DNA from: Gossypium raimondii
Taxonomy: Eukaryota; Streptophyta; Magnoliopsida; Malvales; Malvaceae
Reading direction: 5' to 3'
DNA length: 64,000 nt
NCBI RefSeq assembly: GCF_025698545.1
Contig: NC_068569.1
Coordinates: 13,454,001-13,518,000 of the forward strand
The notes under the pieces are model-generated. The model did no database searches and was not told where the DNA came from. It saw nothing but the letters and a program-made list of their open reading frames with translations. Positions 43,498 to 52,455 of this stretch are shown here, piece by piece (within the stretch, counting starts at the first letter, position 1; every line of letters begins with the position of its first letter). A program made the translations under genes and the position numbers.

Positions 43498-44699
43498 TGT
43501 AGCACCTCGTTTTTAGTAAAATCAGAACAATAATTTCGGGATCACAAATTTGAGTCCGAAAGAAATTTTATTTTAATGTTATTTTATTATCTGCATTATA
43601 ATTAAAATATTTTATGAAAATTTCATAAAGAAATTTTACTGATTTTATGTCTAATCGATAAAAGACTAAATTGCATAAAATGCAAAAGTTGAGTTCTACT
43701 AGTTAAAAGTATAAAATAGCTATGAAATTCAAAATTTGAGGTCCTTATATGGCAATTAGACTATTAAGTGGAGTTAGTAAATAAGTATGATGATTCATCC
43801 ATGGAAATTTAATTAAGGAAAAAGATGAAATTGGAAAATAAAAGATGAAAAGATGATAAATTAATAAAATAAGAAAATATCATCATTTTTCATCATCTTT
43901 CCCAAAATTAAATCCATGGAAACTCTAGTTAAGAGAAAAGAGCTCAAGCAAGCTTATTTAGCTTAATTGGGTAAGTATTCTTATTCCGTTTTTTTAGTAA
44001 TTTTCATATTTCCGAGATCGTAATAGCTTAATCTAACTATTTCGGGGATTAATTTGTAAAGTTATCAAAGCATTAAGGTTTTTTCATGTATGGGTATGCA
44101 TGAATTATGAAATTTATGGTAGAAAATGAAAGGTTTTGATAGGTAAACAACTTTTGTAAAGTGAATTTTTATGAAATTATGATTTAGGGATTAAATTGAA
44201 AAGATGTAAAATTCATGAAAAAATTCTGATTTTTGTGAAATACATGGGCTGTAAATGTTAAATATAAAAATAGGCTAGGCTTGGAATAAGGATTAAATTG
44301 CAGGAATTTCATTTTTCGAGCTTAGGGACGAAATCATAATTAATCAAAAGTATAGAGGCAAAATGGTAATTTTTCCTAAGATGTGAATTAGATTGAATTG
44401 AATGTGAATTTTATTAAATTGAGTTAAATTTACTCGTATAGATCCGGATAGACCTAGTTCGGAATTGGATCGGGAAAAACAAAAAGTATCGAAATAATAG
44501 TCTACAAAACAAACATTATCGAGGTAAGTTCGTGTAACTAAATTGTGTATATTTATATGTTTGAATTGAATGTTATATATGTGAATTGTGAAATTGTTAT
44601 TTATATGAAATTGATTACATATCCGAGAAAACTGATAAATCTCAAGTCCCGTTTGAATAAATGAAATTCGATAAATACAGGATTTCTTGTATTGGTTGT

Positions 44700-45190
44700 G
44701 GTCCTGCATATGTTGCGGACACACCACAGCTCGAAAGAGCGTCTCGTTATAAGCCCTCTCAAGCTTCCTGTTATATGGTTCTTGCGAGCTTCCCGTTAAT
44801 AGCTCTTCGGAGCATCCCGATTGGTTGTGATTCTGCATGTGTTGTAGACACACCACAGCTCTTATGAACGTTCTGATATATGGCTCTTCGTGAGCTTCCC
44901 GATTAAAGGCTCTTTGTGAACTTCTTGATTAATAACAACTCTCCGAAAATTCTCGATATGGCTCGCTTGAACTTTTCGATATATGGCTATTTGGAGCTTC
45001 CCGATTAATGGCTCTACAGAGCTACCTGTTATTGGCTTGCATGAGCTTCCTGATTATGCCTCTTATGAGCTTCCCGTTATAAGGCCCGGATAAGCCTCCT
45101 GTTACATGGTTCACATGAGCTTCCCGTTATATGGTTTGAAAGAGTGCTTCCCGTTAGTGTGCTCTTATGAGCATTCCCGAATATGAATTG
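44700..45190. repeat. degenerate short repeats in element A
   Basis: Units of about 25-40 bp built on GAGCTTCCCGTTATATGGCT, more than ten copies with much decay. Homologous to 46430-46810 in element B. Confidence 0.8.
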
Positions 45191-46429
45191 ACGGGTTATA
45201 GTTTTGTACACTTAATGTGTACTACTCGTGTAACAGCCCATTTTTGGTGAAATCGAAACAGTGGTTTCGGGATCACAAATCCGAGTCTGAAAAGAAAATT
45301 ATTTTAATATTATTTTATGGTCTGCATTATGATAGAAATATCATATGAAATTTTTGTTAAGAAAATTTTACCAATTACATGTTTAATTGATAAAAGGACC
45401 AAATTGCATAAAATGCAAAAAATGAGTTCTAGTAGCTATATGTATCAAATAGCTATGGAATTTAAAGTTTGAGGTCCTTATATTACAAATAGACCATTAA
45501 GAGAAGTTAGCGAGATAAGGATGATGATTCATCTATGAAAATTTAATTAAAGAAAATGATGAAATTGGAAATAAAAGATATTAAAAGATGATAATTGATT
45601 AAACGATGAAAATATCATCTTTTCATCATCTTTCCTAAATTTTTTTATGGAAATCCTTTCAAAGAGAAAAGAGTTCAAGCAAACTTACTTGGCTTAATTG
45701 GGTAAGTAATCTTGTCCCATTTTTAGTAATTTTTATATTTTCGAGATCGTAATAACCTAATCTAGCTATCTTAGGGATTTATTTGCAAAATTATCAAAGT
45801 ACTGGGGTTTTTACATGAATGAGTATGCATGAATTATGAAGTTTCATGGTAGAAAATGAAAGGTTGTTGATAGATAAACAACTTTTGTTAAAGGAATTTT
45901 GATGAAAATGTGATTTAGGGATTAAATTGTAAAGATGAAAAATTTATGAAAAAAATTTTCTGAAATACATGGGCTGCTATTATTATATGTAAAAATCGGC
46001 TAGGCTTGGAATAAGGATTAAATTGCATGAATTTCATTTTTCGAGCCTAGGGATGAAATCGTCACTAATTAAAAGTATAAGGGAAAATTGTAATTTTGCC
46101 TAAGTTATGTATTGGATCGAATTGAGAATAAAATTGTATTAAATTGAGTTAAATTTACTCGTATAGAACCGGATAGACTAAATAGGAATTGGATCGAGGA
46201 AAAGAAAAAGTAACGAATTAGTAACATACAAGTTCACGAACATTGTCGAGGTAAGTTCGTGTAACTTAATTGTGCAATTATATGTTTGAATTAATTTGAA
46301 TTATTTGTTTGAGAATTGTCTACTAGCCATGTATAGGAAGTCTGATCATATATCCGAAAAATACCCGATAAATGTTAAATCTCGTTTGAATAAATGAAAT
46401 TTGATTGGATACAGGGTTCCCGTATCGGT

Positions 46430-46810
46430 TGTGGTCTTGCATATGTTGTGAACACACCATAGCTGGAAAGAGCGTCCCGTTATAAGCACTCTCAAGCTTC
46501 CCGTTATATGGTTCTTGCGAGCTTCCAGTTAATAGCTCTTCGGAGCATCCCGATTGATTTTGACCCTACATGTGTTGTGGGCACACCGCAGCTCTTATGA
46601 GCGTTCCGTATATGGCTCTCTGTGAGCTTCCCGTTATATGGCTATCCGGTGCTTCATGATTAATTGCTCTTCGGAGCTACCCATTAATTATTTTCCGCAG
46701 CTACCCATTATAGGCTCTTTGTGAGCTTTTCGTTCTATTGCCCAGATAAGCTTTCGGTTACATGGCTCACATGAGCTTCCCGTTATAGTGCATGAGAGAG
46801 AGATTTCTGT
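46430..46810. repeat. degenerate short repeats in element B
   Basis: Same GAGCTTCCCGTTATATGGCT-type units as in element A, fewer and with different copy order. Confidence 0.8.
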
Positions 46811-47009
46811 TTATGTACTTGTAAAAGCACTCTTAAACGTGAATTGATGGATTTACAGTAGTGTACGCTTTGTGTGTACTACCCATGTATCCATCAAAAT
46901 TTCAAATGATTTAACGGGTGGAATTCTGACACGAGAACATAGGAAATCAAAATGAATCATTATCTGTATATACTTGAAAACATATGGAAACATTATTGAT
47001 GAGTTCATC

Positions 47010-50424: not shown

Positions 50425-50745
50425 TCCACACGGGCAGAGGCACGGGTGTGTGTCTCAGCCGTGTGTGACACAGGACTTAACACATGGGCGTGTGTTCTGG
50501 CTGTGTGTCCCCTGCATCTTAAAAATTTCAAAACAAAATGCTCAGATTTGATCACACGGCCTAGCACACGAGCGTGTGGCTTGGCCATGTGACCCCTGCA
50601 CCTAATTAATGAAAATTAAAATTTTCACACGGCCTAACACTCGGTCGTGTGACCCAAGTCAGAGAGTTACACGACCTAAGACATGGGTGTGTCACTTGGT
50701 CGTGTGAGCCACATGGGCTGACCAGACAAGCGTGTATGTCTTGCA
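50425..50745. repeat. CACACGG/CGTGTG quasi-palindromic repeats in element B
   Basis: GC-rich units such as CACACGGCCTAGCACACGAG followed by CGTGTGGCTTGGCCATGTG recur several times. Each unit is nearly self-complementary and could form hairpins. This repeat type is frequent in cotton gypsy LTRs. Confidence 0.85.
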
Positions 50746-51804
50746 CTTTAGAAAAATTTTGAAATTTCACGAAAAATTATCTGAGATTCCGATTTAGTCT
50801 CGATTTGTTTCTAATGTATGTTTTGGGCCTCGAGGGCTTATATAAGGGACGATATGATTAATTTATTATTAATTTTTTATATGAATGTGAAGTAATATGA
50901 AATATTTGAGTTTGGTCTATAAACTCCGGTACTGCTCCTAAACCCTGCTCCGGCAACGAATATGGGTTAGGGGTGTTACAACTCGTGTATCCATTGATAT
51001 TTTAAATAATTCAACGGGAAAAAATCCTGACATGAGAACATATGAATCCAAATTGAATCATTACTCGTATATATATATATGAAATACATGGAACTTGACT
51101 TTTGATGAGCTCATCCTTATTATTGATATTCACATGAAATAAATAACTGACATGTTTGGTGAGATTATGTGCTTAGGCTTTTGGCCAAGTTGTTGGAATG
51201 TGTTTGTATACTTACCGTAAATGCAAATGAATGGTAAGATAATTTTCGTTATACGAAGTAAGATAGTTTTCATTATACGAACTTACTAAGCATTAATTGC
51301 TTACTCTGTTTTATTTCTTTTGTTTTATAGTACTAAGAGGCTCATAAAGGTTGGAAGTTGGTTAGAGCTACATCACACTATCCTCAACTCGCTTTGGTAT
51401 AAATAGCAAACTTTCTTTTGAGTATAATGGCATGTATAGGCTAAAGTGGTCAAGGATGGCATGTATGTGTTTGGTTGGAATTAGCCATTGGTATGACTTG
51501 TAAATGGTATGTTTTTATATACTGAATGGTCTTAATATGTTTAATGTGTGTTTGGAATGGATGATTAAGATTCTTGAAAATCATATAGGCATATTAGTTA
51601 TGATAGTAAAATTGATAGAACATGCCTATATGTACATATGGTATTTTGGTATGTATAGATACTTGAACATATGTGTTGATGTCTTACATAAAAATTATTT
51701 TGGCTTGGTTTGAATGATTTATATTGGATTGGGAATGTGTTTAAATGTTAATGTAGGTGAAAGACAAGTTTGGGTGAGAAATAAGGTTTGGAAATGACCT
51801 TATT

Positions 51805-52225
51805 TTGTCCACATAGGCAGAGACACGGGCGTGTGTCTCAGCCGTATGTGACACATGGCCATGCGCACGGGTATTTTCACACGGTTCGGCCGTATGTCCC
51901 CTGCATCTTTAAAATTGCAAAACAGAATGCTCAGGTATTTTCACACGGGCAAAGATACAAGCGTGTATCTCAGCCGTGTGCGGCACACGGGCGTGTGACT
52001 TGGCCGTGTGGCCCCTGCACTTAATTATGTAAAATAAAATGTTCACACGGCCTAGCACACGGGCGTGTGGCTTGGCCGTGTTACTTAAGTCAGTAACCAC
52101 TCTAATTTGGACACGGGTTGAGACACGACCATGTGTCCCTATTTCGAATGTCCACACGGCTTGAAACACGGGCGTGTCTCTCGGCCGTGTGAGACACACG
52201 GCTTGGCCACACTAGTGTGTGTCCC
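51805..52225. repeat. CACACGG/CGTGTG quasi-palindromic repeats in element A
   Basis: Same unit type as in element B (for example CACGGGCGTGTGGCTTGGCC), with about ten copies. The short open frames on both strands here are translations of the repeat and not genes. Confidence 0.85.
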
Positions 52226-52455
52226 TTGCACCTTAGAAAATTTTTGAGATTTTGCAAAAAATTCTTTAAGTTCCCGGTTTAGTCCCGACTTGTTTTAAAT
52301 GCATATTTTGGGCCTTGAGGGCCCATTTAGGGGAGAATATGATTGATTTTGGATATGAATAATTATATGAATCAACTGTATTTGTTCTGTAAACTCCGAT
52401 AATGCTCCGTAACCCTGTTCCGGCAATGGATATAGGTTAGGGGTATTACATTATA

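What the first reader, a model, noticed from the sequence alone, without database searches (positions are those of the whole stretch)
43498..52450. Three-level nest of LTR elements with readable target duplications
C sits in B and B sits in A. Target duplications are TCATC (perfect) for C, ACTCG (perfect) for B and TTATG/TTATA for A. All three are 2.7-3.2 kb, start TGTARCA or TATAACA and end TRTTACA, and none has gag or pol. A and B belong to one family, so a relative inserted into its own kind. The order of events is certain from the geometry and gives a small time series at one site. Three empty units in a row raise the question whether these are solo LTRs or an efficient non-autonomous family.
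Basis: seen in the sequence. Interest (0 to 1): 0.75.

Follow-up and report, generated by a model that had tools for sequence, protein, structure and literature searches.

The report
Nested solo LTRs in a plant

Summary
The nest is real. A (43498-52450), B (45229-50980) and C (47010-49739) are same-strand LTRs with target duplications TTATG/TTATA, ACTCG/ACTCG and TCATC/TCATC. All three are best read as solo LTRs of a Ty3/gypsy lineage, probably chromovirus Tekay/Del. Full-length-type relatives of A and B exist: LTR pairs, a tRNA-Met-type primer site, a purine tract, and one decayed interior with gag, protease, RT and RNase H matches and weak integrase and chromodomain matches. Of 59 sampled relatives with both ends examined, 40 have 5-bp duplications (4/5 or 5/5), 12 border internal sequence, 7 are unresolved. 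Solo-like and internal-bordered copies mix on a tree, against a separate non-autonomous family. Insertion order A, B, C is certain; the order in which they lost their interiors is not. Divergence marks C as youngest but does not separate A from B. Tekay self-insertion and Tekay solo LTRs are already reported for cotton. Interest is low; a weak lead is clustering of breaks near the LTR's middle.

The parts
43498..45228 (+). LTR A, left part (1731 bp), starts TGTAGCA; TSD TTATG at 43493-43497
   Evidence: best relatives about 90% over the first 1003 bp
45224..45228 (.). TSD of B, first copy (ACTCG); second copy 50981-50985
45229..47009 (+). LTR B, left part (1781 bp), starts TGTAACA; its last 5 bases (47005-47009) are the first TSD copy of C (TCATC)
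47010..49739 (+). LTR C, whole (2730 bp), TATAACA..TGTTACA
49740..50980 (+). Second TSD copy of C (49740-49744), then LTR B right part (1236 bp), ends TGTTACA
50981..52450 (+). Second TSD copy of B (50981-50985), then LTR A right part (1465 bp), ends TATTACA; TSD TTATA at 52451-52455

Best explanation
A, B and C are three solo LTRs of related Ty3/gypsy subfamilies, probably the chromovirus lineage Tekay/Del, in a cotton-like plant genome. Each arrived as a full element by integrase-mediated insertion that made a 5-bp duplication (TSDs shown; the full element is inferred). Each later lost its interior and one LTR, most likely by homologous recombination between its own two LTRs (inferred). B went into the middle of A's LTR and C into the middle of B's LTR, in that order (shown).
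For: TSDs at all three levels against a cross-copy control. Relatives without the inserts across both points. LTRs of the A/B type as same-strand pairs: C4:7624284-7635513, and by spacing alone C6:17631044/17638395, C13:13094405/13102208, C8:466300/474183, C11:37354515/37364915. Primer site TTGGTATCAGAGC behind some LTRs and purine tract GGGGGAGAG before others. Interior of L043: stop-free pieces match Retrotrans_gag, RVP_2, RVT_1, RT_RNaseH and SH3_Tf2-1 above Pfam cut-offs. 40 of 59 relatives with both ends examined carry a 4/5 or 5/5 duplication, 12 of 59 border internal sequence, 7 of 59 are unresolved. Solo-like and internal-bordered copies mix on a tree of 31 (7 changes, shuffle mean 7.9, P 0.28).
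Against: A's TSD has one mismatch and C begins TA. Recombination is not observed. The relatives are best matches to the window's copies, not a census; among the 40 scored hits no two lie as a pair. For C, no clear direct LTR pair was seen among the 40 scored copies; a full-length state rests on one copy with a primer site and one with a purine tract. Integrase core and chromodomain matches of L043 are below Pfam cut-offs (rve E 0.00013, Chromo E 0.018, partial); no RT tree was built, so 'Tekay' rests largely on the literature. The tree test has little power (9 internal-bordered copies).
Confidence: 0.93

Rival explanations
1. An efficient non-autonomous family: LTR-only units of 2.7-3.2 kb moved in trans by an autonomous partner.
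For: Three empty units in a row; most sampled relatives also lack internal sequence beside them (40 of 59).
Against: A lone LTR has neither primer site nor purine tract, so no known route of reverse transcription (established knowledge). LTRs of the A/B type also flank coding interiors. Solo-like and internal-bordered copies are mixed on the tree. No recent LTR-only expansion was seen: the shortest terminal branch among 38 left parts is 0.058.
Confidence: 0.03
2. A variant of the main reading: B entered one LTR of a still full-length A (and C one LTR of a full-length B), and the outer element collapsed to a solo LTR only afterwards, keeping the LTR that held the insert.
For: Not excluded by geometry. 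An interrupted LTR that still has a primer site behind it exists: L022, insert of about 2.6 kb.
Against: No direct evidence at this site; recombination between an interrupted and an intact LTR is expected to be less easy (inference).
Confidence: 0.35

Closest known systems
Tekay and CRM solo LTRs of Gossypium (PMC12557855: abstract, section 6 and passages seen)
   Same: Solo-LTR formation by these lineages in cotton; polymorphic solo LTRs there mostly carry TSDs.
   Different: That paper gives counts and distributions; the word 'nested' occurs 0 times in its main text. It finds Tekay solo LTRs more abundant in A than in D subgenomes; the share in my sample is not comparable.
'Autoinsertions' of plant LTR retrotransposons (PMC6911290: abstract, sections 6 and 7 and passages seen)
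   Same: Elements nested in their own lineage; Tekay and CRM autoinsertions are named for Gossypium raimondii.
   Different: It analyses annotated nested/original pairs and finds LTRs (and integrase) the least-hit regions; here both insertions lie inside LTRs and all three units are solo LTRs.

Membership tests
solo LTR | A single LTR with TG..CA-type ends, flanked by a target duplication | tested here: met
   A's duplication is 4/5, C begins TA instead of TG
solo LTR | No purine tract, primer site or internal sequence adjoining | tested here: met
   flanks read; the only primer-site-like match in the window (up to 1 mismatch) is at 29325-29337, minus strand
solo LTR | Full-length elements with the same kind of LTR exist in the genome | tested here: met
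   A/B type: pairs and L043. C type: only internal-bordered LTRs, 2 of 20
Ty3/gypsy chromovirus, Tekay/Del lineage | gag, protease, RT, RNase H, integrase in gypsy order, C-terminal chromodomain | tested here: inconclusive
   Seen in a relative (L043), not in A, B or C: gag, RVP_2, RVT_1, RT_RNaseH, SH3_Tf2-1 above cut-offs; rve and Chromo below
Ty3/gypsy chromovirus, Tekay/Del lineage | Place in the Tekay clade on an RT/RNase H/integrase tree | not tested
   no reference set was used
non-autonomous LTR family (TRIM/LARD type) | Two LTRs around a short non-coding interior with primer site and purine tract | tested here: not met
   A, B and C are each one LTR without interior

The most novel reading that the evidence does not exclude
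The middle of this LTR (A positions about 1600-1910 of 3196) is an insertion hot spot, so that nests grow at one place. Besides B in A (1731) and C in B (about A 1861), 5 of 8 interrupted or broken copies among 34 A-type copies break there, while the interval is 14% of the length after position 1003. The interval was chosen after seeing the data, and some breaks may be truncations.
Probability: 0.15. Interest if true: 0.4.

Novelty: already known. Interest (0 to 1): 0.15.

Why it matters
It shows that a by-eye reading of nested LTRs in raw sequence can be right to the base, and it adds one orderable site to the known picture of insertion and solo-LTR formation in cotton-like genomes. It opens no new question except the weak clustering of breaks near the LTR's middle.

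Tried and rejected
A non-autonomous family was considered and rejected (see rivals).

Dating: three-point terminal branches on Kimura distances are A 0.055 (0.042-0.068), B 0.061 (0.048-0.076), C 0.029 (0.022-0.036). They use two relatives each, the left 1450 bp for A and B but the whole LTR for C, and are upper bounds on age. They support C as youngest and do not order A and B. On a larger tree of 38 left parts A is 0.092 and B 0.080, with uneven sampling.

Hot spot: one search lists gaps and last aligned positions in 34 A-type copies. I counted as interrupted or broken L013, L021, L022, L023, L027, L028, L033 and L041. I did not count L036 (gap of 386 bp in the copy against 695 bp in A, so not an insertion), the gaps in L010 and L017 (beyond the LTR end), or the deletions in L009 and L026. 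L033 is a rearrangement; L013's continuation about 14 kb away is inferred from a hit; L027 has no right part within 8 kb. So the clustering stays a lead.

Not possible or empty: a comparison with related species (the genome has no relatives in the collection); PMC2764891 and PMC1581434 are not held; an exact-phrase search for nested solo LTRs listed one paper, of which I saw only the listing. I saw no description of this locus in the listings; I made no wider search. Rfam and ARAGORN found only a tRNA in the window.

Errors mended: one search gave nothing through a column error and was redone. In one search the automatic start finder misplaced the starts of C-type copies 68 and 70 and B-type copy 86 and found none for C-type 50 and 82; 68, 70 and 86 were re-read by eye (68 and 70 are 5/5, 86 is 3/5), 50 and 82 were left unresolved. 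L015 and L016 were called purine-tract by eye from variant tracts that the script did not mark; L039 was left unresolved.

Full report
Observation. The window is G000:C5:13454001-13518000 in a 750.8 Mb genome of 281 contigs. Hits fell on contigs C1-C13, each of about 48-63 Mb; size and number suggest Gossypium raimondii or a near relative. That name is recalled and comes from no call. The three units were read base by base. C is uninterrupted at 47010-49739 and splits B, with TCATC on both sides. B spans 45229-50980 and splits A, with ACTCG on both sides. A spans 43498-52450, with TTATG before and TTATA behind. All three lie on the same strand. Compared piece by piece, A and B match over 81.9% of 1444 bp on the left and about 69-70% on the right; the right piece of B begins to align at position 131 of A's right piece. 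C gives only short matches to the pieces of A and B.

Test of continuity. Hits to B_left and B_right adjoin within 0-7 bp in 11 copies, for example C12:35683608/35683607 and C8:59563221/59563220, and four more pairs lie 32-39 bp apart. Two copies read at base level hold TCATC once at that place (L104, L105). For A, ten copies whose A_right hit begins within the first 10 positions run from the A_left end straight into the A_right start. The remaining copies of the top-40 lists were not all tested in this way.

Solo or full length. One search listed 39 copies besides the window's own; 34 were fetched and both ends were found in 29. Of these 29, 13 have a 5/5 duplication, 5 have 4/5, 8 border a purine tract or primer site (L009, L012, L015, L016, L017, L022, L024, L032) and 3 are unresolved (L030, L039, L040). 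Of 10 B-type copies, 6 are 5/5, 1 is 4/5, 2 border internal sequence and 1 is unresolved. Of 20 C-type copies, 12 are 5/5, 3 are 4/5, 2 border internal sequence and 3 are unresolved. Together 40 of 59 are solo-like, 12 of 59 border internal sequence, 7 of 59 are unresolved. The B- and C-type copies were picked because both ends stood in the hit lists, so this is not a genome-wide rate. Control: in 57 of the 59 copies (two C-type copies without a readable start left out), 31 own pairs match 5/5, 9 match 4/5 and 9 match 3/5; among 3192 pairs of different copies the shares are 0.19%, 2.5% and 11.8%.

Full-length relatives. Same-strand LTR pairs of the A/B type occur at several places; only one interior was read. 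At C4 (L043) a whole LTR and the last 278 bp of another lie 4.8 kb apart. Separate stop-free pieces of the interior match Retrotrans_gag, RVP_2, RVT_1, RT_RNaseH and SH3_Tf2-1 above Pfam's cut-offs; rve and Chromo match below them. Stops break its frame, and its two LTRs differ by a Kimura distance of 0.17 over 278 bp, so it is an old copy. The leader behind an A-type LTR (TTTATTGGTATCAGAGCTACAGTTTAGCC, L022) recurs with two changes behind a C-type LTR (copy 62), which puts C in the same wider lineage.

Family or not. On a tree of 31 left parts, 22 solo-like (A and B included) and 9 bordering internal sequence (L027, by its purine tract only, included) need 7 label changes against a shuffle mean of 7.9, P 0.28. 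The labels are therefore not grouped beyond chance; with 9 copies the test has little power. It speaks against, and does not exclude, a separate LTR-only family.

Timing. Geometry fixes the insertion order A, B, C. It does not fix when each lost its interior. Three-point branch lengths make C the youngest (0.029) and leave A (0.055) and B (0.061) overlapping.

What is known. PMC6911290 (abstract, sections 6 and 7, passages seen) reports autoinsertions of Tekay and CRM in Gossypium raimondii and the lowest nesting frequency in LTRs and integrase. PMC12557855 (abstract, section 6, passages seen) reports solo-LTR formation by Tekay and CRM in cotton. PMC6317226 (passages seen) found chromodomains in 94% of chromoviruses and in no other group it studied. 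The locus is an instance of these known processes. With 8 of 34 A-type copies interrupted or broken and several thousand loose candidates per query (6130 to 11709), nests of two and three levels are to be expected often (inference).

Lead. The two insertions in the window and 5 of the 8 breaks lie within about 310 bp of the LTR's middle. The interval was chosen after the fact and the count is small.

Noticed in passing
window 21280-24246 (+): A fourth LTR-like unit, TGTAACAGCC..GGGTGTTACA, with acaag before and acgag behind (4/5): probably another solo LTR, 80% identical to C over 506 bp.
   Followed up: partly
window about 26916-28618; 27579-27829 and 29010-29264: A decayed LTR-like stretch related to C and B, and two 255-bp direct repeats 94.9% identical with about 1.2 kb between them, perhaps the ends of a small element.
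   Followed up: no
window 29325-29337 (-): Exact primer-site-like TTGGTATCAGAGC on the minus strand; no LTR was identified beside it.
   Followed up: no
L021, oriented, about 2274-7105: An LTR-like unit of about 4.8 kb (TGTAACAGCCCGG..GTGTTACA) inserted in an A-type solo LTR with TSD CTTGA, close to the same mid-LTR place.
   Followed up: partly
L024: An LTR with a purine tract before it and a primer site behind it, as in an interior-LTR-interior arrangement.
   Followed up: no
window 48381-48473 (C positions 1372-1464): A 2 x 46 bp tandem repeat in C; overlapping and repeated hits at these positions suggest that its copy number varies among relatives.
   Followed up: no
window 11556-12098, 29886-31112, 17895-17966: Host genes: calmodulin-binding protein N-terminal domain, F-box/LRR protein, tRNA-Asp.
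   Followed up: no
window about 42500-42601 (+): By eye, a reading frame resembling the end of a WD-repeat protein stops about 0.9 kb before A; not searched.
   Followed up: no
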